Of a DNA stretch of 35,644 bases, positions 663 to 31,336 are shown piece by piece. The notes below the pieces were generated by a model, which saw nothing but the letters and a program-made list of their open reading frames with translations, did not search any database and was not told the DNA's origin. The position numbers and the translations under genes were made by a program. The number at the start of each line of letters is the position of its first letter. The first letter of the stretch is position 1. Source of the stretch: a virus; IMG/VR virus record IMGVR_UViG_3300042731_002983, positions 1-35,644 of that record. One strand, 5' to 3'.

Positions 663-844
663 TGTCAAAGAAGTACATACTAATAACAGGATGTTGTGAC
701 CCAATGCGATGGTATAGCGGGCTTGTCGGTCGCAAAGTGCCGTTTGTTCGCGACACTGGGGATGGGTGGGCATCTATTGACCGTGGTGGGTACGTAAATT
801 TAGTCCAATATGAGGACGGCGTTCTGATAGTAGCAGGCGATTAG
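662..844 (+). CDS. Small hypothetical protein, 60 aa
   Basis: The start at 662 overlaps the stop of the phosphoesterase gene (TAATG), with AGAGGG about 8 bases upstream; this is preferred to an in-frame start further up inside that gene. The product has no transmembrane segment. It is rich in glycine and aromatic residues and begins MSKKYILITGCCDPMRWYSG, with short beta-like blocks. I do not recognise the family. It is the last gene of the rightward recombination operon before the tandem-hexamer promoter at 840-872, which overlaps its 3' end. Confidence 0.6.
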   Translation: MSKKYILITGCCDPMRWYSGLVGRKVPFVRDTGDGWASIDRGGYVNLVQYEDGVLIVAGD

Positions 845-872
845 CCATACGTTTACCATCTTGTGCAATACT
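840..872 (+). promoter_or_regulatory. Tandem-hexamer promoter (site a)
   Basis: The site has ATTAGC at 840-845, GTTTAC at 851-856, ten bases, then AATACT at 867-872, the same geometry as nine other sites in the window. The upstream half-site is the weakest. The leader that follows closely matches the leader after the minus-strand site at 27590-27622, through the Shine-Dalgarno sequence and start codon of the downstream gene. Confidence 0.7.
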
Positions 873-7291: not shown

Positions 7292-8041
7292 TTATATGAT
7301 TGAGCTTCCGCCCATTGGGTTTTTAGCAGGGATCCTAAACCCGCCAAAATTGATCACGTTGTCAAACTTGTTGATACACGTTCCTCGCACTTTGTCACAC
7401 CCGGGGTATAGCGTCACAGTGTCGTCCACGGCAAGGGACCCTATTGCGCGCTGTAGGGTGATCATAGACCCGGAGTGCGCGACGATGTAGCCATATATAT
7501 CATCCGCAGTGCGGAGCATCCCGCCCGCGAAATAGCCGTCGTCCTCGCTGGCAGCGGCCGCAACCGTAATGTCAACGCCGTCCACTGCAGACGCTGTCCC
7601 GGCTGTTGCAAAATCGTCTTTGTTAACGCCGCACCACGGTCCGTATAGTACATGTCTGCATGTTTTTTGATATCTTGCGATAAGTCCTGCGCGCTTAAGC
7701 CCAACAAAGACATTGTCAAACGTCACCTTTAGCGCTGTGCCTGACGGGGCTGCCGCCAGCATCTTTCCCTTCCACAAAACAGACGTGCCTGTGTCATCTT
7801 GCCTAAAAAGCGTGATGGCTAGAGTAGTGTCTACTGTAGACAAAAGCACTTCTTGGGCAAGATCGTCATTAATGTCAAGTGACACTTCGAGTTTTGATTT
7901 TGACAGCTCGTTTTTAGACTCGATGTTGCCGCGCCCGATCACTGCCGGCGAGTACGTATCCCCTCCGTACGACACGGCAGCCGAGGAGCTGGTCTTATAC
8001 CACTCTGCTGTTCCTCGTGAGAATTTGTAGAGCTCCGTCAT
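7292..8041 (-). CDS. Distal tail protein, BR0599 / gpL-like
   Basis: The 249-residue protein matches the DUF2163/BR0599 pattern. The N-terminal two thirds is beta-rich. Conserved cysteines lie in CRHVLYGPWCG and, near the C terminus, in GCDKVRGTCINKFDN followed by NFGGFRIPAKNP. Lambda gpL has a similar cysteine-bearing C-terminal domain that binds an iron-sulfur cluster; the four Cys here make that plausible but unproven. It would join the tail tube and tape measure to the tip protein. It overlaps the upstream gene by four bases. Confidence 0.8.
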   Translation of the reverse strand: MTELYKFSRGTAEWYKTSSSAAVSYGGDTYSPAVIGRGNIESKNELSKSKLEVSLDINDDLAQEVLLSTVDTTLAITLFRQDDTGTSVLWKGKMLAAAPSGTALKVTFDNVFVGLKRAGLIARYQKTCRHVLYGPWCGVNKDDFATAGTASAVDGVDITVAAAASEDDGYFAGGMLRTADDIYGYIVAHSGSMITLQRAIGSLAVDDTVTLYPGCDKVRGTCINKFDNVINFGGFRIPAKNPMGGSSII

Positions 8042-9144
8042 ATTGTCGTTATCCTTAGCTGAGATCTTGCTATGCCTGGCGCCATATGCGCTATGTTAAC
8101 CACGTCGTTATCTAGCCTATTATAGCGCAAAAATGACAGCATGGCTATCTCCGTAGCGTCCATCTCCAGCGATGAGTCTAGCGTCAGGCGGACGGTGTTT
8201 TGGTCGATTTCCGTCACGTCCGTAACGCCGCGCATGTGCCATGTGCCTGACGTGTCAAGCACGGCTATATTATCGGCTGATTCAAGCTCGTCGTTTTCTA
8301 CATCGATGACCGTCGTGATAGCGCCTGTTGATTGCAGGCGCATGTCGTTGTCAAAACTCGGCATGTAGAATCCTCGATATTTCCCGGCCCGTCGGAAGAG
8401 GAACTCTTCGTATTCTCGAAGATCATCTCTTGTTTTTACGATTGTGTCGAGCGGCTTTGAATGTCGCAGTTTAAGCCACGGCGTAGACTGGGCTACAAGA
8501 CCGATCCCGAAGTCGTTGATCTCTTGGAGCTGGGATAGCGTCGTCGGAACAAACGTTCCATCCTTAATCCCTGGGTCGGTGTAGATGTCCTCCCCGTCGT
8601 ATTGAGCAGGCGTGGCTGGAGCTATTGCCGCCACATCCTGCACAACGAACGTTATTGATACGCTTCCTGATTGCCCGTTGGTATCAAGGGATGGATCCCC
8701 TTTAACAAACCCTGTCCGAACCGGCATAACGTATGCGTCGTCAAGCGCAGACGCGCCGGCCGTAAGCGTTATGGTTGTGTCTGTCTGGCTGTCGATCGAC
8801 ACCACTTCATATCCTTCTGGACCATATAGCAGCGCAGTATCTATAAAATCTGTGATGGTTGTATCGCATGATATAACCGTCTGGCCAGAGGTGACATCTC
8901 CTACGCTTTGCATGTAGGGCCACATGGGGATGTACCATCCCCCGCGAAGATTGTTAAATAGTGAGTTATATACAAGCGGCTTTTTAGCCTTGCTTAAGTG
9001 GTATGAAAACTCGAAAGTTTGGCGCGGCACTACGCGTATTTGCGTGCGCTGCTCTGTGCCGTCGCGGTGCTCAATGATGTCAGTCAGCCATTCATATCGC
9101 TCACGGATGGGCCACGTAGGTTCGATCGGTATGACGCTAGGCAT
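8038..9144 (-). CDS. Minor tail protein, 368 aa
   Basis: The protein begins MPSVIPIEPTWPIRERYEWL, and the sequence contains WYIPMWPYMQ, a style seen in minor tail proteins encoded between tape measure and gpL-like genes (DUF2460-like or gpM-like position). It appears to have two similar halves: SFNNLRGGWYIPMW-like and KYRGFYMPSFDNDM-like segments, each followed by beta-rich blocks. Context makes a distal tail role likely. The start overlaps the tape-measure stop by eight bases. Confidence 0.7.
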   Translation of the reverse strand: MPSVIPIEPTWPIRERYEWLTDIIEHRDGTEQRTQIRVVPRQTFEFSYHLSKAKKPLVYNSLFNNLRGGWYIPMWPYMQSVGDVTSGQTVISCDTTITDFIDTALLYGPEGYEVVSIDSQTDTTITLTAGASALDDAYVMPVRTGFVKGDPSLDTNGQSGSVSITFVVQDVAAIAPATPAQYDGEDIYTDPGIKDGTFVPTTLSQLQEINDFGIGLVAQSTPWLKLRHSKPLDTIVKTRDDLREYEEFLFRRAGKYRGFYMPSFDNDMRLQSTGAITTVIDVENDELESADNIAVLDTSGTWHMRGVTDVTEIDQNTVRLTLDSSLEMDATEIAMLSFLRYNRLDNDVVNIAHMAPGIARSQLRITTI

Positions 9145-12286: not shown

Positions 12287-12319
12287 GTTTGCCTTATGTT
12301 TGCTTTCTTGCAACATAAT
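12287..12319 (+). promoter_or_regulatory. Tandem-hexamer promoter (site h), GTTTGC variant
   Basis: GTTTGC at 12287-12292, GTTTGC at 12298-12303 (11-bp period), ten bases, then CATAAT at 12314-12319. This fits the shared geometry. It points into the ANNGC tract and away from the G chaperone gene. No plus-strand gene follows, so the likely transcript is a short RNA. Confidence 0.75.
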
Positions 12320-12330
12320 GTGGATGTTGC

Positions 12331-12370
12331 AGCGCATCGCAGAGCAGTGCAAAGCAAGGCAGTGCACAGC
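12331..12370 (+). repeat. ANNGC pentamer repeat, 8 copies
   Basis: Eight consecutive pentamers of form A-N-N-G-C. The A, G and C are fixed and the two inner bases vary (GC, TC, GA, GT, AA, AG, GT, CA). Period five is not a coding period. Confidence 0.9.
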
Positions 12371-12388
12371 AATGAAACGAAATGCACC

Positions 12389-12432: not shown

Positions 12433-13392
12433 TCACGCGAAGTATCCGTATTTGATGTGATACGCCTGGTTTGTCGAGTCGTCTTTTAGGAATACGCGTG
12501 CTGTGTATGCCAATTTTCCGTCAACGACGCCTTTCGCAGGAGGTTGAGTCGGGTCGACCTGAGCCTTAAACCCTTTGATCTCTACTTTTTTTCCGCTTGA
12601 TGCCCCGGCAGTGATGACGACAATGTGCTCCGTTTCTTCTGCCAATAGCGTCCAAATGTCGTTCGTGTTTGCCGTGTCTGCGATGTAGGTCAGATCGATA
12701 TAAGGCTCGTGGTCGTCGTTGGAGTGTATCTTGTCACTCACCGCATATGTAGGCGTGTTGGTGGAGCCGGTGCTGAACTCAAACGACGTAACAGCGCGCG
12801 ATATACCGTTGATTGTGATGTTGTCCGTTGATTTGAGCACGATCAGCGCGTTTTCGTCCTCGACGAATGCCGGATTGGCCTCCGTGACCGGGGCGCCGTT
12901 TGAGTAGCCTGCGATATCGGCCTTGAGCATGATCGGCTCTCCTGCTGTTCCGGAGACCGTCAGGACGCCGAGCGCCTTGCTGATGGTGTCTTTTTCTCCG
13001 TCGCGGTACACAACCACCTCTGATGCTGCTGGGTCGTCCTGGGTCGGAGTGTAGATGACAGTTTCTTCGCCTGGCGTCCCGGTGTCGATGGTCTCGTCAA
13101 GACAGCAGATTTGCAGTACATCCGACCAGCCAGGAGGAGTATCGAGCGCCGTTGCTGCGTCGTCGTTACCTCGCAGATATGTCTCGAGCGATACGGACCC
13201 CTGCGTGTTGTCAGTGTTGACCCATGCTTGCTGTGCGCCTTTGCGGCCTGTTGCGCGTTTGTATTTACCGCCTCCTGGCGTTTTTGTCACCTCGATGTTT
13301 TCTGCATTTGATACCTCTACGACATCAGATGATGATGCAGTTCCGTCGTATTTTGCCAACACGATGACGCTGGATGAGTTTTGATATGCCAT
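12433..13392 (-). CDS. Major tail tube protein
   Basis: This 319-residue, beta-rich protein lies directly before the G/GT chaperone genes, the standard place for the tail tube subunit. It opens with MAYQNSSSVIVLAKYDGTAS and has segments such as GSVSLETYLRGNDDA and FEFSTGSTNTPTYAVSD. The region GTAGEPIMLKADIAG looks like part of the tube fold. AAAAAAGGGGCAACAA precedes the ATG, and a sigma70-like -10 (TATAAT, minus strand, 13417-13412) lies about 20 bases upstream, so it likely begins its own transcript. It stops just before a hairpin that may reduce expression of the distal tail genes. Confidence 0.85.
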   Translation of the reverse strand: MAYQNSSSVIVLAKYDGTASSSDVVEVSNAENIEVTKTPGGGKYKRATGRKGAQQAWVNTDNTQGSVSLETYLRGNDDAATALDTPPGWSDVLQICCLDETIDTGTPGEETVIYTPTQDDPAASEVVVYRDGEKDTISKALGVLTVSGTAGEPIMLKADIAGYSNGAPVTEANPAFVEDENALIVLKSTDNITINGISRAVTSFEFSTGSTNTPTYAVSDKIHSNDDHEPYIDLTYIADTANTNDIWTLLAEETEHIVVITAGASSGKKVEIKGFKAQVDPTQPPAKGVVDGKLAYTARVFLKDDSTNQAYHIKYGYFA

Positions 13393-13411
13393 TTGTTGCC
13401 CCTTTTTTCAT

Positions 13412-13417
13412 ATTATA
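13412..13417 (-). promoter_or_regulatory. Minus-strand -10 for tail tube operon
   Basis: TATAAT on the minus strand, preceded by CGC, about 20 bases upstream of the tail tube start. No TTGACA-like -35 is seen. Instead the -35 region overlaps the GTTTAC tandem of the divergent plus-strand promoter. The same relation (ATTATAGC then GTTTRC) recurs at 14679 and 19635. Confidence 0.65.
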
Positions 13418-13421
13418 GCGT

Positions 13422-13454
13422 GTTTACTGTACGTTTACTTTTTTGTGCGACAAT
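13422..13454 (+). promoter_or_regulatory. Tandem-hexamer promoter (site b)
   Basis: GTTTAC at 13422-13427, GTTTAC at 13433-13438, ten bases, GACAAT at 13449-13454. It drives the plus-strand cassette of two small genes (13527 and 13797). A leader of about 65 bases follows, with two small possible hairpins and the gene's AAAAGGAG ribosome site. Confidence 0.78.
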
Positions 13455-13526
13455 AAATAGTATTTAAAAAAAGGACTTCAGATAATCGAAGGCTACCGCC
13501 AATAATGGTATTCACAAAAGGAGTAA

Positions 13527-13793
13527 ATGATGAAAATCATAATCGGAAAGTACACAGTAGAAAGACTTGATGAACATAACATCACAGTAAGTTTCTTAAA
13601 ACTTGTAAATAAAAAAGAAGGTGGTCAGGCTGAACAACATGTCAGACTTGGATATTATGGGAACATAAAAAATGCATTGATAAAAGTCATGAACCACACA
13701 ATCGAATCTTCAGATGCTAATACGTGTGATGATTTAATAGCTGTAATAGACAAAGCAGAAAAAGAAATCATAAGCGCTGTAACGAAGGAGTAG
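13527..13793 (+). CDS. Hypothetical protein in plus-strand insertion cassette, 88 aa
   Basis: This Lys/Asn/Ile-rich protein begins MMKIIIGKYTVERLDEHNIT and ends in a helical, charged tail. It is more AT-rich than the surrounding tail genes and on the opposite strand, so it looks like an acquired moron-type gene carrying its own promoter (site b). AAAAGGAGTAA lies before the ATG pair; the first ATG (13527) or second (13530) may be used. No family recognised. Confidence 0.65.
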   Translation: MMKIIIGKYTVERLDEHNITVSFLKLVNKKEGGQAEQHVRLGYYGNIKNALIKVMNHTIESSDANTCDDLIAVIDKAEKEIISAVTKE

Positions 13794-13796
13794 ACG

Positions 13797-13961
13797 ATGA
13801 AAGCAATACACGTAAACCACTTTGGTGCTAAAACAACAATGACAAAATCAGCAATCAGAGTAAAATATCTAAAACAAAATTCTGCGGCTCAAAAGGTTCT
13901 GGCATATTTTCGCGGACCGTGGAGACTGCGCGACGAGGCTAAAGGCGCTCCGGCTATTTAA
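13797..13961 (+). CDS. Small basic hypothetical protein, 54 aa
   Basis: The ATG at 13797 follows GAAGGAGTAGACG, a good ribosome site, and begins three bases after the upstream stop. The product is basic (begins MKAIHVNHFGAKTTMTKSA), with a helical middle (YLKQNSAAQKVLAYF) and a WRLRDEAKGAP tail. No domain recognised. Its last bases overlap the stop of the convergent tail terminator gene. Confidence 0.6.
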   Translation: MKAIHVNHFGAKTTMTKSAIRVKYLKQNSAAQKVLAYFRGPWRLRDEAKGAPAI

Positions 13962-14347
13962 ATGCTTGATGCCTGCCCGTCAGGCGTCCCCCAATATCTC
14001 ATCTCAATATCTGCTATGCTCTCATAGACATTACCCCATTGATTCGCGCGCTGAAGCGTGTACATTGGGCCGAACTCCATCCCGTCCAACTCTCGCTCGC
14101 TCATCAGCTTTGACAGGTTGTCGATCATCTGATCGAGCTTGAGTGGGACCGACGCGAAAACATAGAACCGCACAGTCACGACATGCATCTCCAGCCCTAC
14201 CGCAGGGCGAGAGACACTGATCGGGATGTATTTAACTAATATTAGATCGTGGTCGTTGGTGTATGTGGCTCCCTCGAAATATTGTGGGTAGAGCGTCTGG
14301 TTTGTCGTCAAAAATGTTTCTAGCGCGATTTTAAAAGCCGCCTTCAC
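13958..14347 (-). CDS. Tail terminator-like protein, 129 aa
   Basis: The length, alpha/beta pattern and position (after an HK97 gp10-like protein, upstream of the tail tube gene) fit the tail terminator that caps the tube after length is reached. It starts with a helix (MKAAFKIALETFLTTNQTLY) and ends with a beta-rich region containing MRYWGTPDGQ. The start overlaps the upstream stop by four bases. Confidence 0.7.
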   Translation of the reverse strand: MKAAFKIALETFLTTNQTLYPQYFEGATYTNDHDLILVKYIPISVSRPAVGLEMHVVTVRFYVFASVPLKLDQMIDNLSKLMSERELDGMEFGPMYTLQRANQWGNVYESIADIEMRYWGTPDGQASSI

Positions 14348-14673
14348 TTAATTCTCCTCAGCAGTTTTGTGATGTTTTCGCGATGGCGCTTGATGATTGG
14401 CTGCCATCCATTCGGGAGTTGTTCAGACCCTTGCATTTTGCCGCCGATCATCCTACGTCCTCCATCGATTACGGGCGCGTATTCAACGTTCGTTTGCGTG
14501 ATGTATTTGTATTTTCCCGGTATCCATTCCCAGCTGCCCTTCAGGTGCCCAGTGTCAACCGGGGTTGCAGACACTACGTCACGGTGCATTTCAACGGCTT
14601 CGGTCTTGGCGATCTTGTCGCGCTTTTTCAGCAGTGCGTCCAGTTCTGCGTCGAATTCTTCCAAAACTCCCAT
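14344..14673 (-). CDS. Tail completion protein, HK97 gp10-like
   Basis: The 109-residue protein carries the PVDTGHLKGSW motif, characteristic of the HK97 gp10 / minor tail completion family, preceded by a charged helix. It joins head-tail connectors to the tail. There is no Shine-Dalgarno sequence. The ATG is six bases downstream of a perfect TATAAT (14684-14679, minus strand), so the transcript may begin at or next to the start codon, that is, be leaderless. Confidence 0.8.
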   Translation of the reverse strand: MGVLEEFDAELDALLKKRDKIAKTEAVEMHRDVVSATPVDTGHLKGSWEWIPGKYKYITQTNVEYAPVIDGGRRMIGGKMQGSEQLPNGWQPIIKRHRENITKLLRRIK

Positions 14674-14678
14674 GACTT

Positions 14679-14684
14679 ATTATA
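14679..14684 (-). promoter_or_regulatory. Minus-strand -10, leaderless-type promoter
   Basis: TATAAT on the minus strand, preceded by GCGC, ends six bases before the ATG of the tail completion gene. The -35 region overlaps the GTTTGC tandem of site g on the other strand. Confidence 0.65.
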
Positions 14685-14688
14685 GCGC

Positions 14689-14721
14689 GTTTGCCGTCTG
14701 TTTGCTTTCTTGCGTCATAAT
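14689..14721 (+). promoter_or_regulatory. Tandem-hexamer promoter (site g), GTTTGC variant
   Basis: GTTTGC at 14689-14694, GTTTGC at 14700-14705, ten bases, CATAAT at 14716-14721. From GTTTGC on it is nearly the same as site h, including the following TGTGGATGTTGC. It should drive the ANNGC tracts and perhaps the two plus-strand genes at 14968-15976. Confidence 0.78.
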
Positions 14722-14732
14722 GTGGATGTTGC

Positions 14733-14777
14733 AACGCAGGGCAACGCATCGCATTGCAATGCAGAGCAGTGCAAAGC
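14733..14777 (+). repeat. ANNGC pentamer repeat, 9 copies
   Basis: Nine consecutive A-N-N-G-C pentamers, preceded by GTTGC and followed by AACGAAATGCACC, as in the two other tracts. Confidence 0.9.
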
Positions 14778-14789
14778 AACGAAATGCAC

Positions 14790-14812
14790 CGGCCCCTTCG
14801 GGGGGCGTGATG
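14790..14812 (+). terminator. TTCG hairpin after pentamer tract 2
   Basis: GGCCCC-TTCG-GGGGGC forms a GC-rich hairpin right after AACGAAATGCACC. No T-run follows, so it may be a stability or processing element rather than a terminator. Confidence 0.45.
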
Positions 14813-14836
14813 GAGCTCTTCTTAGGAAGGTTCCAC

Positions 14837-14886
14837 AACGCAGGGCAGAGCAGTGCAACGCAACGCATCGCACGGCAAAGCAAGGC
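14837..14886 (+). repeat. ANNGC pentamer repeat, 10 copies
   Basis: Ten consecutive A-N-N-G-C pentamers, followed by AACGAAATGCACC. This copy has no tandem-hexamer promoter of its own and is about 60 bases after copy 2. Confidence 0.9.
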
Positions 14887-14895
14887 AACGAAATG

Positions 14896-14917
14896 CACCA
14901 CCCCTTCCGGGGTGTGA
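14896..14917 (+). terminator. TTCC hairpin after pentamer tract 3
   Basis: CACCCC-TTCC-GGGGTG makes a 6-bp stem directly after the third tract, followed by TGATT. The equivalent position after tract 1 has the same flanking GTGATT. Confidence 0.45.
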
Positions 14918-14967
14918 TTAGTTAGGCCGTTTTCGGACGGTCAATAAATCACACAAAGGAACTACAA

Positions 14968-15567
14968 ATGGCTATTCAAAGCTTGAAAGTCAAGTTCGAG
15001 GGATTCTCCCCGCTCTTACAAAACAACCCGCAGACGGTTGACCCGCTGAGCAAATACGCTCAGATGAAAAAACCTCTGACTTCGAAGAACAAAAAAACAG
15101 ACGAAGACATCCTCGAAATCCGTAGGATTGAGGTGGAGTCGAAGGTGTTTTGGGATGATAAGATTGGCATTTTTGTCCCTACTCGATGGGTGCTTGCCGC
15201 TGTCGCGCAAAACTCATACAAGATTGCGAAGATCTCAAAAGCAACCGCACGTGGGGCGATCTTCGCTACATATGACAAGGCGAAACTTACATACAGTGGA
15301 ATGCGAAACGTCAAAAAGCTCATCGACATTCCGAGAAACGAGAGGTTCGTCCGGCTCCTGAATCTCCCCCAGAAAGGCGTACGTCTCGCAAAAGCATTCC
15401 CTATTTTCGAGAATTGGAGCTTCGAGGTCGAGCTGGAATATGACGACGGAGTTGTCAATAAGTCGTCACTTGTTGATATTCTGAACTATTCGGCACGCTA
15501 CGGAGGATTCGGGGACTTGCGCCCGTCATACGGACGGTGTAATATGGAGGTGCTCGATGATGAGTAA
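14968..15567 (+). CDS. Hypothetical phage protein in plus-strand cassette, 199 aa
   Basis: The ATG follows AAAGGAACTACAA. The product opens with MAIQSLKVKFEGFSPLLQNN, then DPLSKYAQMKKPLTSKNKKT, and ends with a Gly-rich stretch (YGGFGDLRPSYGR). The opening hydrophobic strand, the Lys-rich KKTDED segment and the Gly-rich end resemble a phage family that I know only as hypothetical; the pattern is reminiscent of RAMP-like folds, but this is weak. It lies on the strand opposite to the head and tail genes, between the connectors and the tail completion gene, so it is probably not structural. Confidence 0.7.
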   Translation: MAIQSLKVKFEGFSPLLQNNPQTVDPLSKYAQMKKPLTSKNKKTDEDILEIRRIEVESKVFWDDKIGIFVPTRWVLAAVAQNSYKIAKISKATARGAIFATYDKAKLTYSGMRNVKKLIDIPRNERFVRLLNLPQKGVRLAKAFPIFENWSFEVELEYDDGVVNKSSLVDILNYSARYGGFGDLRPSYGRCNMEVLDDE

Positions 15568-15976
15568 TAATGATCGGCGCGACATCATGGAGGAGCTACG
15601 AAGCATGGGATGGTTTGAGTTTGGAGCCGTTGTAGCTGCCGACGAATATAGGGCGGCCTTCGGGATCTCGTATCCCGAGAGAGGGACCAAAGCTGAGTTC
15701 GACAGGATCGCGCTTGAGGAGCTGGGCCATATCGACTTCGTGCGGGGCCAACTGCTAAATGAAGGGAAATACCTGCGTCGCGATGGAGCTTCATATCGAA
15801 TATTGCTACCTAGCGAAAATGCAGGTCAGATCGAGGCGTACATGCAAAGCGCATCCAATAAGCTGAAGCGCGCTATCAAGCTTGGTAAGCACACCCCAGC
15901 AGAACACAAAGAAGAGATTGCATCTACTCTAGTGCGGGCAGAGATGAAGCTTGCGTCTACGCGCCGGAGCTCATGA
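15557..15976 (+). CDS. Hypothetical protein, 139 aa
   Basis: The ATG pair at 15557/15560 follows GGAGGTGCTCG and overlaps the end of the upstream gene, so both genes are probably co-translated. The product is mostly helical and charged (EELRSMGWFEFGAVVAADEY; EEIASTLVRAEMKLAS), with a central segment GKYLRRDGASYRILLPSE that resembles a winged-helix wing. DNA binding is possible but unproven. Its stop overlaps the stop of the convergent connector gene. Confidence 0.6.
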   Translation: MMSNNDRRDIMEELRSMGWFEFGAVVAADEYRAAFGISYPERGTKAEFDRIALEELGHIDFVRGQLLNEGKYLRRDGASYRILLPSENAGQIEAYMQSASNKLKRAIKLGKHTPAEHKEEIASTLVRAEMKLASTRRSS

Positions 15977-16318
15977 TTTCACCCTGGCGTCTCCTGTGAC
16001 TACCGCCTGGTAGACCACGACGCGCCCAAACATTCCTATCTTACGGAGGTTTTTAATCTCCCTGGAGGCGCCGAAGTAGGTCATGGTATCGAATGCATCT
16101 ACGGCCTCGTCTGTGACGAACGTGACCAGCATGTCGCCGTCGTGCTCGCCCGCCATGTCTTCATGCACTCCGTAGGTGTTTTCCGTCACTACCGTTTCGG
16201 CATACGTGCCAGTAGCCGGGTTATATGCTCCTTGTGTGACCCGTTCGAACGTAAGCGGATTGCCGAACCTACGCGTCAGTAGCCTGGCGATCTTTTTGAG
16301 TGCAGCATCAAGCGCCAT
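15971..16318 (-). CDS. Head-tail connector / head closure protein, 115 aa
   Basis: It starts with an amphipathic helix (MALDAALKKIARLLTRRFG), then a beta-rich domain with YNPATGTYAE and YQAVVTGDARV. Size and location (after the DnaT-like connector, before tail completion) fit a head closure or stopper protein that seals packaged DNA. It starts three bases after the upstream stop. Confidence 0.65.
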   Translation of the reverse strand: MALDAALKKIARLLTRRFGNPLTFERVTQGAYNPATGTYAETVVTENTYGVHEDMAGEHDGDMLVTFVTDEAVDAFDTMTYFGASREIKNLRKIGMFGRVVVYQAVVTGDARVKS

Positions 16319-16321
16319 ATC

Positions 16322-16789
16322 TCACCCCAACACAAGACGGCCCGACGGAGCCAGCGCAAACCGAAGCAGCTGAGTAACGAATGGGGGGAATTTCTTTCCT
16401 CCTCCAGCTCCGGCTTTGGTCGTGATTGAGATCGGCCCAACGGTCACGGCGCTGAAATCGTCCATATCGCCCGGGGCGCTGTAGTCGTCTTGGAGCGCAT
16501 AGATCGCCAGCTCGCACGCAGCATCAAGGACTTTCTGCGGCACCTCGTCGGGGTCTACGTCTACGCCGTCGTCAACCAGCCCGGAGCGCGGGAACTTCAG
16601 AACCTGGTCTGAATCAGTGCGCACGCCCATATAGTCGCGATAGTCGATCATCCGCGTGGCCTGTATGAGGGCAGCGTCTTTATTCGCGTCTGTTGCGTCG
16701 TCCCATTCCGAACTGTTTAGCCGGTCCGCAAAGTATGTTTCCGCGTCCGCCCGGCTGATGTATGAGTTTGTTCCTGCGATGAGCGCCAT
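16322..16789 (-). CDS. Head-tail connector, DnaT-like domain, 155 aa
   Basis: The sequence pattern SYISRADAETYFADRLNSSE followed by KDAALIQATRMID and LKFPRSGL is the signature of phage connector proteins annotated as DnaT-like single-stranded-DNA-binding domain or gp6-like. It ends with a Gly/Lys hinge (AGAGGGKKFPP) and a helix. It should sit under the portal and take part in head completion. AAGGGTAAATA precedes the ATG. Confidence 0.8.
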   Translation of the reverse strand: MALIAGTNSYISRADAETYFADRLNSSEWDDATDANKDAALIQATRMIDYRDYMGVRTDSDQVLKFPRSGLVDDGVDVDPDEVPQKVLDAACELAIYALQDDYSAPGDMDDFSAVTVGPISITTKAGAGGGKKFPPFVTQLLRFALAPSGRLVLG

Positions 16790-16805
16790 TATTTACCCTT
16801 CTTCT

Positions 16806-17369
16806 TTATAGGTCTATCTCGTAAAAGAAAAATGTAGCAGAGCATATTGCTTCCGCAAGCGTGTCCATGTTTGTAAGTCTGACCGCATAGTTTGCATTTC
16901 TCTTCAGGCACCATTCCCCTTCTATGGCCGCGTATCCGCCCTCTGTGTGTGACCCTCCAGCCGATGCGGTGATCTTTCTTGTTGATATTACGCTTCCGCC
17001 TGTAATTGTTGCATCAGTGTATACAAGCATGTCTGCCTCGGTTGTGCTTTGACGATTTCTATTTTGAGTGGCCACGGCGTCGCCGTTATCTGTGATCGTA
17101 ACATCCTCTATCAACTCTATCAGGATGGGGCCATTATCTGATGTAATTTCGAAATCACGGAAATGTACATCTGTGTCGGCCCCTGTTGTGGCTGCAAAAA
17201 TATATGTGCCACCATTCGCAGTTAATGTTGGCGTACCTGAAATGTCGAAACAACACCCTTCATGCAGCAACTGCGCAAGAGAATCTACCGAGGCGATAAA
17301 ATGCCCGCGATCCTCATTGCCGTATGTTCTGATTTTCTGACCGTGCTCTTCAATATAGTTTGACGACAT
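16806..17369 (-). CDS. Virion-associated protein, 187 aa
   Basis: The product is Thr/Gly/Ala-rich and beta-rich (TPTLTANGGTYIFAATTGAD; TDATITGGSVISTRKITASA), like head decoration or minor head proteins. It lies between the capsid genes and the connectors, with a very strong ribosome site (AAGGAGGAAGCC). The exact role is not known. Confidence 0.65.
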   Translation of the reverse strand: MSSNYIEEHGQKIRTYGNEDRGHFIASVDSLAQLLHEGCCFDISGTPTLTANGGTYIFAATTGADTDVHFRDFEITSDNGPILIELIEDVTITDNGDAVATQNRNRQSTTEADMLVYTDATITGGSVISTRKITASAGGSHTEGGYAAIEGEWCLKRNANYAVRLTNMDTLAEAICSATFFFYEIDL

Positions 17370-17390
17370 GGCTTCCTCCTTGACTTAATT

Positions 17391-17410
17391 GTCGGCCCCG
17401 AAAGACCGAC
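17391..17410 (-). terminator. Hairpin between head genes
   Basis: GTCGGTC...GGCCGAC read on the minus strand forms a 7-bp stem (one G-U pair) with a short TTTCGG loop. It sits between the 47-residue gene and the 187-residue gene. The following AATTAAG is a poor T-run, so partial termination or message processing is more likely than strong termination. Confidence 0.4.
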
Positions 17411-17416
17411 GATAAA

Positions 17417-17560
17417 TCAAGCCTCTTTTTTGGACGGTGGGCGTCCTGGCTTTTTGGGCTCTTTCTCCCCCTTGATCTTCCACCCGGCACCAAGCCAACC
17501 TGGAACGTCAACAGCATGAGGAACTTTCTCCTCTTTGCCGTCTTTTACAACAATTACCAT
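17417..17560 (-). CDS. Small basic protein, 47 aa
   Basis: The ATG is separated from the previous stop by one base and has AAAGGGGTG upstream. The product begins MVIVVKDGKEEKVPHAVDVP and ends in a basic KPGRPPSKKEA tail that resembles an AT-hook-like or disordered nucleic acid-binding segment. Its place just after the decoration gene suggests a head-associated factor. Tiny head-completion genes of this sort are common, and I cannot be more precise. Confidence 0.65.
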   Translation of the reverse strand: MVIVVKDGKEEKVPHAVDVPGWLGAGWKIKGEKEPKKPGRPPSKKEA

Positions 17561-17561
17561 A

Positions 17562-17981
17562 TCACACCCCTTTGGAGAAGTACGCTTCAAGCGTTACGGC
17601 GGTGGCTGTAGTCCCTGTCTGCGTCGCAGTGACACGGAAGTAGTCAGCGTCAGCAATAGCATCAGCAATTTCGCGCAGGTTGACTGTTGCAAGGATTGCC
17701 CCTGTGTCAGTGACCTTAGCCAAAGACCCTTTGACCGGGTAGTATGTTGCGTTATCCGCGCTCGCTTGCATTTCCACTTCGATGTAATTATCTGCGTCAA
17801 TAGTCCCTGTTGCTACAGATACGTTGTAGATGATATCTACGTTCTCATCGCCTTCCGCAAGGCTCGTGATGTTCGCGCCGGTGGCATCAGCTGTAGCAGC
17901 ATCACCGCCAGGGGTCAGCGTTGCCGACGCCATAAACTTCAGCTCTGCGTCTACTGGTCTGTTAAAAAGTCCGTTTGCCAT
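17562..17981 (-). CDS. Head decoration or fibre-like capsid protein, 139 aa
   Basis: This Ala/Thr-rich, beta-rich protein (MASATLTPGGDAATADATGA; ATVNLREIADAIADADYF) is encoded directly downstream of the major capsid gene and has a strong GGAGGTGAATT ribosome site. That is the usual place and composition of a capsid decoration protein, which would stabilise the expanded shell. Confidence 0.68.
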   Translation of the reverse strand: MANGLFNRPVDAELKFMASATLTPGGDAATADATGANITSLAEGDENVDIIYNVSVATGTIDADNYIEVEMQASADNATYYPVKGSLAKVTDTGAILATVNLREIADAIADADYFRVTATQTGTTATAVTLEAYFSKGV

Positions 17982-17993
17982 AATTCACCTCCG

Positions 17994-18905
17994 TTAAGCA
18001 ACCATCGTGGCTTTTGTAAAGCCAGACAGACGTGTCAAGTTGTATGCGCCCTGAACGAGCACAGCCGTCATCCAGTCAACCTGGTAGTTGTCTGTGGACC
18101 CGCTTTTTTCTTCGCGTGTCACAATGCCCTGCTGCCCCGATAGCCATGCCACAGCATCTTCGGAAAGGTTCGCAACGAACATAGAAGACGTGCTGCCGGA
18201 TTCTCCGAAACCAAGGATGTCGGCATTAAGATTGTTGCGGCGGATAGGGATGATGGGCACGTCACCATAACGAGGCACCGCTACGCCGAAGTTGTTTTTG
18301 TCGAATGTTACCAGGCTCTCACCGTACCGATTGATAAGCGTCGGCATAGAGTAGTGCGCGAAGATAACGCGATTCCCCATGCCGTCTGTTTCGTCCAGCG
18401 CTTCGTCGAGTTTCGCGCGAGACAAAGCACCGCCGCCATTCGCTACACCGTATCCTCGATCTCCGCGACCTGTTGCTGTTGTGGGCAGAATTGATTTGAG
18501 ACCGTCGAAGTCTTTTGAATCTGTGGCGCTTGAGCCGTTGAAAAACTGGTTCATGATGCGCATGCGGATTGCCTTAATCTGGCTCTCCTGTTTTGCCATA
18601 AGCACATCACTTCCTAGCTGTCCTGTTAGCGTGTAATCGATGCCGATCTTCCCGCCAGTGAGTTTTAGGGCCTCCTGCATCGGCTTTGTTTCACCATTGC
18701 TCGCAGTGTAGTCCTCGTTAAATGCACGAGATCCTGCATTCGGTAGTGTTTTCTCTTCGTTCCATCCATAGGACAGAGTACCGCCTACCGATACCACCGG
18801 CACGCGGTTCCAGAAATCTTCCGCTTCCATGAAATTCTGGATTACCATAGAAGCCATGTTGTCGCCGCGCATATCTGCGAGACGTTGCAGTTCGATGATG
18901 TTCAT
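17994..18905 (-). CDS. Major capsid protein
   Basis: The 303-residue protein follows the scaffold gene and precedes the decoration gene. It opens with MNIIELQRLADMRGDNMASM, has a beta-rich core (SVGGTLSYGWNEEKTLPN), a region FAHYSMPTLINRYGES and ends with TAVLVQGAYNLTRLSGFT, typical of HK97-fold coat proteins. There is no obvious protease or delta domain in it, so assembly probably relies on the separate scaffold. GGAGGAAAATAACA precedes the ATG. Confidence 0.85.
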   Translation of the reverse strand: MNIIELQRLADMRGDNMASMVIQNFMEAEDFWNRVPVVSVGGTLSYGWNEEKTLPNAGSRAFNEDYTASNGETKPMQEALKLTGGKIGIDYTLTGQLGSDVLMAKQESQIKAIRMRIMNQFFNGSSATDSKDFDGLKSILPTTATGRGDRGYGVANGGGALSRAKLDEALDETDGMGNRVIFAHYSMPTLINRYGESLVTFDKNNFGVAVPRYGDVPIIPIRRNNLNADILGFGESGSTSSMFVANLSEDAVAWLSGQQGIVTREEKSGSTDNYQVDWMTAVLVQGAYNLTRLSGFTKATMVA

Positions 18906-18908
18906 TTG

Positions 18909-19592
18909 TTATTTTCCTCCGAACATTTCCCGTTGACGCTCTTTGAACGTCATTGGTTGAGATTCGCCGCCTCCGCCTTTGTGCGGATCGCCGCTTCCGC
19001 CTTGCCCTTGAGCTTTGAAGTAAAAAGGCTTGCTCTCCCGGAGCGCTTCGAGTTTGTCTCCAATTGTCATTGGACGACCATTGGCTCCGCGCTCTTGCAC
19101 TCCGTCTTTCATGTACACGATTCTTGATCCATCGGAGCCATCAACCTCCGCACCATCCTTGAGATAGCGGACCACGTCGTCGATAGCGCCGTCTATCACT
19201 CCTGTTCCTGCTCCGAGCTTCGTCAGCTCTCGGTCAATGATTGCACTCTGGTAGCGAGCGTTAGACTCTCCAAGCTTGCTTTCGTATTCGCTGGTCGCTG
19301 TTTCCAGCTGTTTCGCCAGTCGTTCGATTTCAGCCTGGAGCTTGTCGTCACCTTTGCCGCCTTTTTTGAGATCTGCCAGCGCATCCGCAGTGAGCTCGTC
19401 AACCCCCGCCGCCTCTGCCAGTTCCCGTAGACGTGATTTTGTCTTGTCCCGCGTCGTGACAGCTTCAGAAAACTTGCTTTCAAGCTTTCCGATTTCTTCT
19501 ACGTTAGCGTTAAAGTCCGCCTCGAGTGCCTTGGCGATATCCACCGCCGCTTCGTTGTCCCCGATTGCTTCCAAGAGCTTTTTGAATGACAT
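18909..19592 (-). CDS. Capsid scaffolding protein
   Basis: The 227-residue protein has an acidic, helical N-terminal half with long coiled-coil stretches (KLESKFSEAVTTRDKTKSRL; AEIERLAKQLETATSEY). It ends with a Gly-rich linker (GQGGSGDPHKGGGGESQ) and a basic terminal helix (MTFKERQREMFGGK), the usual layout of scaffolds that bind coat through a basic C terminus. It lies directly before the major capsid gene with three bases between. The start at 19592 has AAAAAAGGATGATGG upstream. Confidence 0.8.
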   Translation of the reverse strand: MSFKKLLEAIGDNEAAVDIAKALEADFNANVEEIGKLESKFSEAVTTRDKTKSRLRELAEAAGVDELTADALADLKKGGKGDDKLQAEIERLAKQLETATSEYESKLGESNARYQSAIIDRELTKLGAGTGVIDGAIDDVVRYLKDGAEVDGSDGSRIVYMKDGVQERGANGRPMTIGDKLEALRESKPFYFKAQGQGGSGDPHKGGGGESQPMTFKERQREMFGGK

Positions 19593-19634
19593 CCATCATC
19601 CTTTTTTGTTATTTGGTCGTCCGACCTTGAGCAT

Positions 19635-19640
19635 ATTATA
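19635..19640 (-). promoter_or_regulatory. Minus-strand -10 for scaffold-capsid transcript
   Basis: TATAAT on the minus strand, preceded by TGC (extended -10), about 43 bases upstream of the scaffold start. As at 13412 and 14679, the -35 zone overlaps a GTTTAC tandem on the other strand. Confidence 0.65.
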
Positions 19641-19644
19641 GCAT

Positions 19645-19677
19645 GTTTACCGTACGTTTACTTTTCTTTGCTACAAT
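19645..19677 (+). promoter_or_regulatory. Tandem-hexamer promoter (site c)
   Basis: GTTTAC at 19645-19650, GTTTAC at 19656-19661, ten bases, TACAAT at 19672-19677. It points into 140 bases with no ribosome site or plausible reading frame. Confidence 0.8.
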
Positions 19678-19683
19678 ACAAGC

Positions 19684-19820: not shown

Positions 19821-20864
19821 TCACTTTTGCATTCCATCCGCAATATCTTCAAGCGTATACTCTCGACCGGATTTAACATCGACAAAATCTTTGATTTCCA
19901 TTTTGTTTTCTTTGTATAGCCTGTAACGTGCGGGTCCGAGATACTCTTTTTGAAACTCTGCGCTTTGTCTATCAAATGCTTCTTGAAATGATGTTTTCGC
20001 GCTGATCTGCCCGGCCTTATCCATATTGGACGCCCGTGTCCTGTCCTTGTCTAGCATGGCTGATAGTGCCGTTCGAGCTACTACGACCGTTCTGCACCGA
20101 AAATGACGGGGATACCAGTAGTTTTTAGCCTTCAGCTTTTCGACGGTCCAGCCTTGCGACTTAAGCCACCGGCGCCCGTCTAGAGATGCGCACAGGAATG
20201 TTGTCCTAGAATCAAGCACGCCTACGCTCTCCCAGCCAATCACAACGTCAGAGGCCTTGTCGTAGGCTTTCTCCATGGCCCTCCCACGAGCTTCTGCTAT
20301 CACGGTGCGTGTGATCGCATCTATGTCGCTTTTGATTGCTTTTTTATTGACGTCTCGCAGCCTTGTCGCGATAGTTGACGGAGCTACGCCCTCCGCAAGC
20401 CCAGCAGCCACAATCTGCCGGAACCGCTTTGCGTGGTAGTCCGTCTGCTCGTCGACGAATCCTGTGATAGTATAGCCGTTATCCCCAAACCGAAGAATCT
20501 CTTCCATGTCCAGGATCTCTTCCATCGCCCGCTTAGGCAAAGCGGCGAAAGCGACCGCTGTGGCTCCGTGCGTCTCAAGCGCAGCAATGCCGGAACTGTA
20601 TGCTACGTCTGCTGCTGACTTCATATCCTCCTGAAGCAGATCAGGCATGATCGTGTACGCCTTCTGAAGTTCGTTAGTGATTTCTTTTATGAGCGCTCGC
20701 AGTCGTTGCTTTTGTGATGACTCTTCTGTCTGCACCAGTTTGAGCGTGATGTTGTCCAGCGCTTCGTTGAGTGCCTTCGCCATCTCGGTCGTAGTCGCCG
20801 GACGGTATCGCTCAAGGAGCATGGATAACTTTAGCTCGCTGTCGAGCAGGTCAACCGGCTGCAT
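19821..20864 (-). CDS. Head morphogenesis protein, SPP1 gp7 / MuF-like
   Basis: This 347-residue protein contains the MuF/gp7 pattern: a long helical N-terminal half, then ITRTVIAEARGRAMEKAYDK, VIGWESVGVLDSRTTFLCASLDG and a C-terminal HFRCRTVVVA. These proteins bind the portal and are needed for head assembly or DNA ejection. The start at 20864 has AAGGAAAAAATGG upstream, and its first codons overlap the end of the HExxH gene. It closes the portal block. Confidence 0.85.
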   Translation of the reverse strand: MQPVDLLDSELKLSMLLERYRPATTTEMAKALNEALDNITLKLVQTEESSQKQRLRALIKEITNELQKAYTIMPDLLQEDMKSAADVAYSSGIAALETHGATAVAFAALPKRAMEEILDMEEILRFGDNGYTITGFVDEQTDYHAKRFRQIVAAGLAEGVAPSTIATRLRDVNKKAIKSDIDAITRTVIAEARGRAMEKAYDKASDVVIGWESVGVLDSRTTFLCASLDGRRWLKSQGWTVEKLKAKNYWYPRHFRCRTVVVARTALSAMLDKDRTRASNMDKAGQISAKTSFQEAFDRQSAEFQKEYLGPARYRLYKENKMEIKDFVDVKSGREYTLEDIADGMQK

Positions 20865-21222
20865 CCATTTTTTCCTTACATGTGTCAAACAGGAAGCCAA
20901 CGAGATAGCACATTGCCTCCCCATGGCTTGACTGCGGGTCTATTCCGACACTTGCAAGCACGAACAGGGCCAAATGCGTAATTTCGTGAACCATCGTCGA
21001 AAGCTTACCGTCAAAAATTCCGACATAATACATAACGGCTCCGTCGCGTTCTCTGTCAAGACAGCAGCACCTACCGCCCAGCCCGCTTAGATCGACACAA
21101 TCCGCTTTAACTGCACTTTTTGCTGACGCGTAATCGTCTCTGCTGGTGAACATGTAACAATCGATGTTGTAGATTGGTATTTGAAAATACCCCTTCTTAA
21201 ATATTTTGTCTATCTTAGCCAT
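20851..21222 (-). CDS. HEITH-motif putative metallopeptidase, 123 aa
   Basis: The product carries His79-Glu80-Ile-Thr-His83, the HExxH zinc-binding motif, with Glu102 downstream (SSHGEAMCYLVGF) in the place expected of a third zinc ligand in gluzincins. The predicted catalytic region lies between alpha-helices. Two cysteines-rich stretches (GRCCCLD) come before it. It is encoded between portal and MuF-like protein with overlapping ends, so it could be a small prohead-associated peptidase or an inactive structural relative. The family is not one I can name with confidence. Confidence 0.65.
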   Translation of the reverse strand: MAKIDKIFKKGYFQIPIYNIDCYMFTSRDDYASAKSAVKADCVDLSGLGGRCCCLDRERDGAVMYYVGIFDGKLSTMVHEITHLALFVLASVGIDPQSSHGEAMCYLVGFLFDTCKEKMDAAG

Positions 21223-22549
21223 TGGCGAACCCTGGCCCCTCAGCCTCTACACGCGCTTTCAGCAGCTCTATGTTTACGCCCTTAAACCTGCCCCCTCGCT
21301 CCATGAGATCCCAGAATGTTTCTTTGTCCAGCAGCCCAGAAGCATACTGCTCCCGCAACTCCCTCATCTCCTCGACGCTAAGAAGCTCTGCGACGAACTC
21401 CGTATTGACCGAGATCTCCTCTTCTCCTGATTTGAGCCCGGCCATGTCGCACCACATTCGGTACGCCTCATTGAGAGTGCCTTGCAGATTCGACGCGATG
21501 GACGCTAGGTCCGCCGTTTCCTGTGCTGAGTCGATGCGCTTTTCTGTCGCGGTGAGCTCCTTCGCCTCATCTTTGCTGGACAGCATAGACAGTCCCATGA
21601 GCGCCATACGCTGTTCTGCCGATGCCATCAGGCGCTCGATAGTCTCTATCTCTTTGCCCTCATACACCATCCATTCAGCGTCACCGCTTTCTTTGTCTCC
21701 CCATTGCAGCGCCCGGTTGACTGCCATCGTCTGGCCGCCTCCGGTCTCTTCCTGCTCAGTTGTGAGGCCCCACATCTTGAGCATTGGGACCATGTATTCC
21801 GTCATCATCCAAATTTTTGAGTCGAGGTTAAAGTGGCGAAGGTTCAGGTCGGCTACGTTGTCGAACATTGGCTTGGATTCTAGGGGCGCAATCCTGCGGG
21901 TGTAAAACATAGAGACTGGGATGTACCCAAGGTCATTAGACCACTCGTCGGCTAATGTCAACTCCTCGGCCCCATCAAGCTGCCGCCAGATCTCACCGCC
22001 TCCGATGTACATCACGCGCACCTGCCGCTTCGCGCCGTCCTCCGGCCTCTCCTCAATCACGATGCGCTGCAGGACGGCCTTGCCGTTGGCGTATTGATAT
22101 TCCCAATCGATAATGTTTTTCCGCTCAGCCAAAACGAAGAACGGCTGAACCCCCGCGGCCTTTTCGTCGGCAAGCGTTCGGATGCCATCTCTCTTCGGAG
22201 CGTCTACGATGATACAGGAGTGACCGAACCATAGTCCAGAGGCTAGCACATCTTGCGCAAAGCGGTTAAGCGTCTGCCCCTCGCCGTCCACGTCTTCATC
22301 GTTCAGCTTGAGGTTTTCGTAGGACAATGGCTTTCTAAAAACCATGCCAGATGCTGCGCTGACGGTCTTTTCTGTGAAGTTCGTTAGGATGGTGTTGCTG
22401 GAGCGCTTGTTGTAGCTGCTGTCTTCTTCGCGCTCCATTTGCGGTAGGTATGTTCGGTTTCTAAGCGCAGTCGGCCCGGACTTGAGAGCCGAAAGCTTCT
22501 CAATAGTCTCAGACCAATGGCGGTATGTTTCGTTCGGTTGGAATTCCAT
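21215..22549 (-). CDS. Portal protein, DUF4055-like
   Basis: The 444-residue protein matches the portal family typified by DUF4055. The N-terminal region has YRHWSETIEKLSALKSGPTA and a later segment reads FTEKTVSAASGMVFRKPLSY. A central block (FGHSCIIVDAPKRDG) and a long C-terminal helical region with KELTATEKRIDSAQETAD follow. It forms the dodecameric DNA channel at the head vertex and docks the terminase. TerL is next upstream after two small genes. A sigma70-like -10 (22575-22570) is about 20 bases upstream of the start. Confidence 0.88.
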   Translation of the reverse strand: MEFQPNETYRHWSETIEKLSALKSGPTALRNRTYLPQMEREEDSSYNKRSSNTILTNFTEKTVSAASGMVFRKPLSYENLKLNDEDVDGEGQTLNRFAQDVLASGLWFGHSCIIVDAPKRDGIRTLADEKAAGVQPFFVLAERKNIIDWEYQYANGKAVLQRIVIEERPEDGAKRQVRVMYIGGGEIWRQLDGAEELTLADEWSNDLGYIPVSMFYTRRIAPLESKPMFDNVADLNLRHFNLDSKIWMMTEYMVPMLKMWGLTTEQEETGGGQTMAVNRALQWGDKESGDAEWMVYEGKEIETIERLMASAEQRMALMGLSMLSSKDEAKELTATEKRIDSAQETADLASIASNLQGTLNEAYRMWCDMAGLKSGEEEISVNTEFVAELLSVEEMRELREQYASGLLDKETFWDLMERGGRFKGVNIELLKARVEAEGPGFANG

Positions 22550-22569: not shown

Positions 22570-22575
22570 ATTATA
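22570..22575 (-). promoter_or_regulatory. Minus-strand promoter before portal
   Basis: TATAAT on the minus strand with GC before it. CTGACC lies 18 bases further upstream and could act as a weak -35. Unlike 13412, 14679 and 19635 it has no tandem hexamers. Confidence 0.5.
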
Positions 22576-22700: not shown

Positions 22701-22892
22701 TCAGCCCTCATGCGCATATCTGCTAATCTCTGCTTTACCGCCGTACATGTCCCATTGATTGCCAAGCGAGTCAACAACAACCCACCCCTCACCCTCTCTC
22801 TTGCCTGAAGCTTTACATGCTGCCTCTGGCGTCCGATGCGTGCTACATCCTTTTATTCCGTAAACGTTAGTTACCATGTATGTTGTTTTCAT
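22701..22892 (-). CDS. Small conserved protein, paralogue A, 63 aa
   Basis: Its sequence is very similar to the gene at 26192-26380. Shared blocks are YGIKG, HRTPEAACKA, KREGEGWVVVDS and GNQWD. The start follows AGAAAGGATCTGAG, which is also nearly the same in both. The short fold looks like beta-beta-alpha with a conserved Trp. Its promoter is tandem-hexamer site i. No function is known to me. The pair suggests duplication of one gene together with part of its leader, with different promoters upstream. Confidence 0.75.
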   Translation of the reverse strand: MKTTYMVTNVYGIKGCSTHRTPEAACKASGKREGEGWVVVDSLGNQWDMYGGKAEISRYAHEG

Positions 22893-22922: not shown

Positions 22923-22955
22923 ATTATGACGAAAGAGAGTAAACAGATGGTTAAC
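22923..22955 (-). promoter_or_regulatory. Tandem-hexamer promoter (site i)
   Basis: On the minus strand: GTTAAC (22955-22950), five bases, GTTTAC (22944-22939), ten bases, CATAAT (22928-22923). It drives the paralogue A gene. The first hexamer lies directly beside the terL stop codon. Confidence 0.78.
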
Positions 22956-26410: not shown

Positions 26411-26439
26411 ATTATAGCAAATATATCTTCTGATTTCAA
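26411..26439 (-). promoter_or_regulatory. Sigma70 promoter before paralogue B
   Basis: On the minus strand TTGAAA (26439-26434), 17 bases, then TATAAT (26416-26411), with TGC before the -10. This is the best match to a bacterial sigma70 promoter in the window and could drive paralogue B, the small HTH gene, the methyltransferase and terminase. Confidence 0.85.
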
Positions 26440-27589: not shown

Positions 27590-27622
27590 AGTATGGCACA
27601 AGATGGTAAATGTATGGCTAAC
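27590..27622 (-). promoter_or_regulatory. Tandem-hexamer promoter (site j)
   Basis: On the minus strand GTTAGC (27622-27617), five bases, ATTTAC (27611-27606), ten bases, CATACT (27595-27590). It overlaps the 3' end of ninG by five bases. Its -10, spacer and leader are almost the same as site a on the opposite strand. Confidence 0.75.
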
Positions 27623-28377: not shown

Positions 28378-28410
28378 ATCATATCATCAAAAAGTAAACA
28401 TACAGTAAAC
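28378..28410 (-). promoter_or_regulatory. Tandem-hexamer promoter (site f)
   Basis: On the minus strand GTTTAC (28410-28405), five bases, GTTTAC (28399-28394), ten bases, TATGAT (28383-28378). It drives the 59-residue gene and ninG. Confidence 0.8.
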
Positions 28411-28611: not shown

Positions 28612-28644
28612 GTTAGCAGTGTGTTTACTTTTCTTAGTAATAAT
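28612..28644 (+). promoter_or_regulatory. Tandem-hexamer promoter (site d)
   Basis: GTTAGC at 28612-28617, GTTTAC at 28623-28628, ten bases, AATAAT at 28639-28644. It drives the three plus-strand genes at 28672-29383. Confidence 0.78.
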
Positions 28645-29383: not shown

Positions 29384-29403
29384 TCACCTGCATGCGCTAT
29401 AAT
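29375..29403 (+). promoter_or_regulatory. Sigma70 promoter before RNA element A
   Basis: TTGCTG at 29375-29380, 17 bases, TATAAT at 29398-29403. It overlaps the end of the 49-residue gene. The predicted start near 29410 is at the very foot of the first hairpin of element A. Confidence 0.72.
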
Positions 29404-29409
29404 ATACTC

Positions 29410-29545: not shown

Positions 29546-29559
29546 CATCCTATGCATGC

Positions 29560-29589
29560 TTGCCTTTACTTCCGACTTTGTGCTATAAT
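29560..29589 (+). promoter_or_regulatory. Sigma70 promoter before RNA element B
   Basis: TTGCCT at 29560-29565, 18 bases, TATAAT at 29584-29589, with TGC before the -10 (extended -10). The predicted start near 29596 is again the foot of the first pairing in element B. Confidence 0.7.
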
Positions 29590-29595
29590 GTGCTC

Positions 29596-31303: not shown

Positions 31304-31336
31304 GTTTACAGATCGTTTACTTTATCGAGCTATACT
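31304..31336 (+). promoter_or_regulatory. Tandem-hexamer promoter (site e)
   Basis: GTTTAC at 31304-31309, GTTTAC at 31315-31320, ten bases, TATACT at 31331-31336. It drives the recombination operon from 31363 onward, possibly through to the phosphoesterase. Confidence 0.82.

What the first reader, a model, noticed from the sequence alone, without database searches (positions are those of the whole stretch)
13412..19677. Back-to-back promoters sharing one operator region at three structural boundaries
At 13412-13454, 14679-14721 and 19635-19677 a minus-strand TATAAT faces the structural genes while the tandem-hexamer promoter faces the other way. The order is always ATTATAGC, two bases, then the first GTTTRC. 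The minus-strand promoters have no TTGACA-like -35; the tandem hexamers take that place. One protein could activate both, or the two polymerases could exclude each other, making a late-early switch. The three sites feed the tail tube, tail completion and scaffold-capsid transcripts.
Basis: partly seen in the sequence, partly recalled or inferred. Interest (0 to 1): 0.68.

Follow-up and report, generated by a model that had tools for sequence, protein, structure and literature searches.

The report
Phage back-to-back promoters sharing an operator
This phage has ten copies of an unusual promoter switched on, most likely, by a DNA-binding regulator that grips two short repeats, and at three places that grip site also sits where a backward-facing promoter for capsid and tail genes must load, so the two directions probably block each other.

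Summary
At 13412, 14679 and 19635 the order is ATTATAGC-N2-GTTTRC-N5-GTTTRC, then 10 bp to a plus-strand -10, and the minus-strand genes are tail tube, tail completion and scaffold/capsid. The hexamer promoter is a ten-member class: GTT[TA][AG]C-N5-GTTTRC-N10-NAYANT (shuffles mean 0.15, maximum 1). The minus-strand class [CT]GCTATAATR has eight members; five lack hexamers and have 3-5/6 matches to TTGACA, while the three back-to-back ones have only 2/6. The layout (11-bp direct repeats, no -35, G at -14) is that of promoters activated by OmpR/PhoB-family response regulators (Helicobacter HP1043, Salmonella PhoP). The same promoter occurs in apparently unrelated phage contigs that share almost no protein with the window, which favours a host activator; bacterial loci found with the pattern carry such regulators in 27 of 56 cases. 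In the minus direction the box is inverted and 4 bp from TATAAT, so a bound activator should block that promoter; start sites ~56 bp apart also preclude two polymerases. "One protein activates both" is less likely but not excluded. Regulator and host are unidentified, nothing was measured, and two of the three sites are 89% identical copies.

The parts
13412..13417 (-). -10 (TATAAT, CGC before it) of minus promoter toward tail tube gene 12433-13392
   Evidence: no -35 (best 2/6)
13422..13438 (+). tandem hexamers GTTTAC-N5-GTTTAC (putative operator)
13449..13454 (+). -10 GACAAT of plus promoter toward 13527-13793 and 13797-13961
14679..14684 (-). -10 TATAAT toward tail-completion gene 14344-14673; start codon about 7 nt downstream (probably leaderless mRNA)
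14689..14705 (+). tandem hexamers GTTTGC-N5-GTTTGC
14716..14721 (+). -10 CATAAT toward GCANN-repeat leader and genes 14968-15567, 15557-15976
19635..19640 (-). -10 TATAAT (extended TGC) toward scaffold 18909-19592 and capsid 17994-18905
19645..19661 (+). tandem hexamers GTTTAC-N5-GTTTAC
19672..19677 (+). -10 TACAAT; no gene found downstream, transcript would run antisense to 19821-20924
840..872 (+). hexamer-class promoter (2 mismatches) toward 903-1079
12287..12319 (+). hexamer-class promoter before a GCANN tract, no long gene behind it, antisense to tail tube gene
22923..22955 (-). hexamer-class promoter (1 mismatch) toward 22701-22892
27590..27622 (-). hexamer-class promoter (2 mismatches) toward 42-aa ORF and 27181-27471
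28378..28410 (-). hexamer-class promoter toward GTG-started ORF ending 28179 and NinG operon
28612..28644 (+). hexamer-class promoter (1 mismatch) toward 28672-28959
31304..31336 (+). hexamer-class promoter toward small ORF and ERF/exonuclease/SSB genes (31439 onward)
8119..8124 (-). GCTATAAT-class -10, no hexamers, -35 4/6, toward 7292-8041
22570..22575 (-). GCTATAAT-class -10, no hexamers, -35 CTGACC, toward portal 21215-22549
26411..26416 (-). GCTATAAT-class -10, no hexamers, -35 TTGAAA, toward 26192-26380 and the methylase/terminase genes
29398..29403 (+). GCTATAAT-class -10, no hexamers
29584..29589 (+). GCTATAAT-class -10, no hexamers, -35 TTGCCT

Best explanation
The three sites are overlaps of two promoter classes. 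Class 1 (ten copies) has two directly repeated GTTTRC hexamers 11 bp apart at about -39 to -23, no -35, and usually a G at -14; inferred: an OmpR/PhoB-type response regulator, more likely of the host than of the phage, binds the repeats as a head-to-tail dimer and recruits polymerase to the plus promoter. Class 2 ([CT]GC-TATAAT) is an extended-10-like promoter of the ordinary polymerase. At the three sites the class 1 box lies inverted over the spacer and -35 region of the class 2 promoter, so occupancy by the regulator or by the plus polymerase should shut the late promoter, and the late promoter fires only when the box is free. Shown: sequences, spacing, copy number, lack of -35, overlap, presence of class 1 in apparently unrelated phages. 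Inferred: regulator family and origin, sign of the effect in the minus direction, timing.
For: Ten sites with exactly 5-bp gap and 10-bp spacer and a clean score gap (lowest site 33.9, next sequence 14.6). Same layout in HP1043 promoters: two hexamers with 5-bp spacer just upstream of -10, no -35, extended TG motif (PMC5253667), and in PhoP architecture I: box 11-12 nt upstream of -10, orientation-dependent (PMC3335776). Searching 84,980 bacterial/archaeal genomes with the promoter pattern gave 56 loci, of which 27 carry an OmpR-family response regulator within the stretch of at most 8 kb. Class 1 recurs in a T7-like group (L089, L099 with two sites, L101), in L083 and in the T4-like L093; a refined 20-base-equivalent pattern hits only L083, L093 and L099 in the whole viral collection. 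Apart from the translated promoter region (L083) and one 67-residue match (L075 record, 48%, with 34791-35012), no protein similarity between the window and those phages was found in the DNA read, which includes 43 kb of one T7-like record. Geometry.
Against: No host genome with a set of such promoters was found (397 Campylobacterota and 369 Gammaproteobacteria sampled: 3 matching genomes, similar to control). No regulator identified in the phage or a host. Several comparison phages are fragments, so a shared phage regulator could have been missed. Many of the bacterial hits are from taxa rich in two-component systems, and no background rate of regulators per 8 kb was measured. Lack of a -35 at exactly these three minus promoters also fits activation rather than repression by the box-binding protein.
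Confidence: 0.5

Rival explanations
1. A phage-encoded activator (CII-like or MotA-like in role) binds the hexamers and turns on the class 1 promoters; the back-to-back overlap works as in the best explanation.
For: Ten near-perfect copies in 35 kb look like a phage's own regulon; no host regulon found; several small ORFs of unknown function are present.
Against: Same promoter in apparently unrelated phages with almost no shared protein found; in the T7-like contigs class 1 stands before what look like early operons (inference); no wHTH candidate by Pfam/PHROGs other than the O-like initiator; spacing is not that of lambda CII (one search finds TTGC-N6-TTGC only at other places).
Confidence: 0.27
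2. One reading: one protein bound to the hexamers activates both directions, replacing the -35 of the minus promoter.
For: The three minus promoters alone in their class lack a -35 (2/6 versus 3-5/6); HP1043's own promoter has its box on the opposite strand.
Against: Inverted PhoP box at the close position is inactive; box centre at about -25 of the minus promoter overlies the spacer; physical exclusion of two polymerases.
Confidence: 0.13
3. Ordinary compact packing: small early-gene cassettes carrying a class 1 promoter were copied into late gene boundaries and abut weak extended-10 promoters, without a selected regulatory link.
For: Cassettes are visibly duplicated: 841-914/27548-27621 91%, 12287-12415/14689-14817 81%, 13409-13455/19632-19678 89%; 22701-22892 and 26192-26380 encode very similar proteins under different promoter classes.
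Against: Identical 2-bp offset retained at 14679, which is only 72% identical to the site at 13412; the overlap would affect both promoters in any case.
Confidence: 0.1

Closest known systems
HP1043/HsrA-dependent promoters of Helicobacter pylori (PMC5253667, PMC8345958)
   Same: Two hexamer direct repeats with 5-bp spacer (11-bp period) immediately upstream of -10, -35 missing, extended TG motif; regulator essential and phosphorylation-independent
   Different: Half-site TTTAAG, not GTTTRC; cellular genes, not phage; regulator here unknown
Salmonella PhoP architecture I promoters (PMC3335776)
   Same: (T/G)GTTTA-N5-(T/G)GTTTA, direct orientation, 11-12 nt upstream of -10 (here 11 if counted as YGTTTR)
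   Different: Phage half-site demands C at its sixth position (20/20); host not known to be enterobacterial
CtrA control of alphaproteobacterial phages, 'lytic deferment' (PMC9437464)
   Same: Host OmpR-family regulator controlling promoters in several phage lineages; TTAA-N7-TTAA has the same 11-bp period
   Different: No TTAA-N7-TTAA in the window; there linked to pilus/flagellum-specific phages
Lambda CII promoters
   Same: Tandem repeats flank the -35 position of an activator-dependent phage promoter
   Different: TTGC-N6-TTGC has a 10-bp period and a different distance to -10 (from general knowledge); CII is not a response regulator
pLS20 overlapping divergent promoters (PMC4207663, title and abstract only)
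   Same: Overlapping divergent promoters used as a switch
   Different: Conjugation plasmid with DNA looping and its own regulators

Membership tests
OmpR/PhoB-family response-regulator promoter | Tandem direct repeats about 11 bp apart | tested here: met
   10 of 10 sites, gap exactly 5
OmpR/PhoB-family response-regulator promoter | Box 10-12 nt upstream of -10, no recognisable -35 | tested here: met
   Spacer exactly 10 in 10 of 10; best -35 1-3 of 6
OmpR/PhoB-family response-regulator promoter | A response regulator that binds the box | not testable with these tools
   None found in the window; host unknown
PhoP box | (T/G/C)GTTTA-N5-(T/G/C)GTTTA | tested here: inconclusive
   Exact at 13421, 19644 and 31303 on the plus strand and at 28410- (minus-strand index 7234); the others vary at the first hexamer or have GTTTG
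CtrA site | TTAA-N7-TTAA | tested here: not met
   0 in the window
Lambda CII site | TTGC-N6-TTGC flanking -35 | tested here: not met
   Class 1 sites have an 11-bp period; CII-type matches lie elsewhere
Mutually exclusive divergent promoters | Polymerase footprints overlap | tested here: met
   -10s 37 bp apart, predicted starts about 56 bp apart
Mutually exclusive divergent promoters | Reciprocal activity measured | not testable with these tools
   No transcription data

The most novel reading that the evidence does not exclude
A host response regulator that is active without a signal (as HP1043 is) serves several unrelated phages as their immediate activator, and in this phage the same bound molecule also holds off late capsid and tail promoters through a shared, inverted operator until it is displaced.
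Probability: 0.25. Interest if true: 0.75.

Novelty: new variant of a known kind. Interest (0 to 1): 0.5.

Why it matters
If right, it would add a further case of phages hard-wiring to a host two-component-type regulator, across phage lineages, and give a simple one-site early/late switch that can be tested with a DNA fragment of about 100 bp. It also gives a searchable promoter signature that could link uncultured phages to a host group.

Tried and rejected
Near and distant relatives: no megablast hit in phage records; terminase relatives L011-L015 (53-61%) and Vibrio/Listonella phages L017/L018 carry no class 1 sites. Pattern TATAGCNNGTTTRCN5GTTTRC in viral contigs gave four single, chance-like hits. 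Campylobacter phage Los1 (among the best hits of L093's gp32-like protein) has no class 1 site. The CenR motif is TGA-N8-TGA, not this. One viral scan was run with the -10 one base off and was repeated correctly. Single-sequence AlphaFold2 of 14968-15567 (pLDDT 36) and 26038-26349 (pLDDT 63) was too poor to use, so no fold search was made. Rfam gave nothing convincing. The idea that the minus promoters are a hexamer-dependent class in general was dropped, since five of eight lack hexamers. Searches were rejected for wrong arguments.

Full report
What is there. The window is a virus record of 35,644 bases with a 69-base repeat at both ends, with minus-strand structural genes and mostly plus-strand replication/recombination genes on the right. 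The three sites of the finding are exactly as described.

Two promoter classes. Class 1: a rule allowing at most two mismatches to GTTTRC-N5-GTTTRC, then exactly 10 bp, then a -10 with at least 4/6 finds ten sites and nothing else: 840+, 12287+, 13422+, 14689+, 19645+, 22955-, 27622-, 28410-, 28612+, 31304+. When gap and spacer are varied, only the cell (5,10) stands out (10; every other cell at most 3); 60 shuffles average 0.15, maximum 1. The alignment shows invariant TT and C in both hexamers, a nearly invariant T between them, a strong T after the second hexamer, and G at -14 in nine of ten. Class 2: [CT]GCTATAATR, eight sites, none in the reversed control, shuffles 0.2. Five class 2 sites have no hexamers and carry 3-5/6 matches to TTGACA at 16-18 bp; the three next to hexamers have 2/6. 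So the missing -35 is a real peculiarity of these three.

Function of class 1. Its layout is that of promoters activated by OmpR/PhoB-family regulators: HP1043 boxes are two hexamers with a 5-bp spacer just upstream of -10, with no -35 and an extended TG (PMC5253667); PhoP architecture I has the box 11-12 nt from -10 (PMC3335776). A scan of bacterial and archaeal genomes with the class 1 pattern returned 56 loci; 27 encode an OmpR-family response regulator in the stretch held. The background rate was not measured; from general knowledge of a few tens of such genes per genome it should be several percent.

Host or phage regulator. Class 1 promoters occur in other viral contigs: L099 (two), L089 and L101, which resemble each other and T7-like phages; L083/G011, whose leader after the -10 resembles the window's 27622- leader; and L093, whose gp32-like protein is closest to Campylobacter phage proteins. 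A stricter pattern found only L083, L093 and L099 in the collection. In a protein comparison the only hits between window and these phages were the translated promoter region (L083) and a 67-residue match with the record of L075 (47.8% identical), at the widespread small protein family of 34791-35012. This favours a host factor, with the limits that most of those contigs are fragments and that no host genome with a matching regulon was found.

The back-to-back sites. In the minus direction the box is inverted and begins 4 bp from TATAAT, covering about -33 to -17. PhoP boxes inverted at the activating position gave no expression, and this position should hinder polymerase. The two -10s are 37 bp apart and predicted starts about 56 bp apart, so two polymerases do not fit. 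I therefore prefer activator for plus and blocker for minus, with mutual exclusion. Co-activation cannot be excluded because these minus promoters are the only ones of their class without a -35. Timing is inference: class 1 also points along the structural genes at 22955-, 27622- and 28410-.

Independence. 13409-13455 and 19632-19678 are 89% identical, 14676-14722 is 72%; several class 1 promoters ride on duplicated small-gene cassettes. The same 2-bp offset at the more diverged site is the best sign of constraint.

GCANN element. Transcripts from 12287+ and 14689+ would begin with tracts of GCANN pentamers and a GC hairpin. The tract also lies near homologs of the gene pair 14968-15567/15557-15976 in Vibrio phage 1.266.O and phiHSIC. 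The regions of three further relatives were fetched alongside that script and the script reported no tract in them; whether they were already readable to it was not checked. Not pursued.

Noticed in passing
12329-12373, 14731-14780, 14840-14889: Tracts of 9-10 GCANN pentamers followed by a GC hairpin, behind two class 1 promoters; similar tracts lie near homologs of the gene pair 14968-15567/15557-15976 in L017 (27922-27961, 28829-28883) and L018 (12170-12199, minus).
   Followed up: partly
30483-30567: Four 19-base repeats (AGTTCAGAAATTGAACCCC type) 22 bp apart inside the lambda-O-like replication gene 30210-31022, as in a lambda-type origin.
   Followed up: no
22701-22892 and 26192-26380: Very similar small proteins under different promoter classes (class 1 at 22955-, class 2 at 26416-).
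   Followed up: partly
3051-4055: Six-fold 141-base repeat in and next to gene 3148-4278, giving repeated GYAMGG...EIDGIQFSDETAINPSATLS units.
   Followed up: no
29390-29680: Tandem duplication with a spacing of about 184 bp, each copy with a GCTATAAT site, no convincing gene.
   Followed up: no
L029, L043, L068: An orthologous-looking class 1-type promoter is present in three Campylobacteraceae genomes.
   Followed up: no
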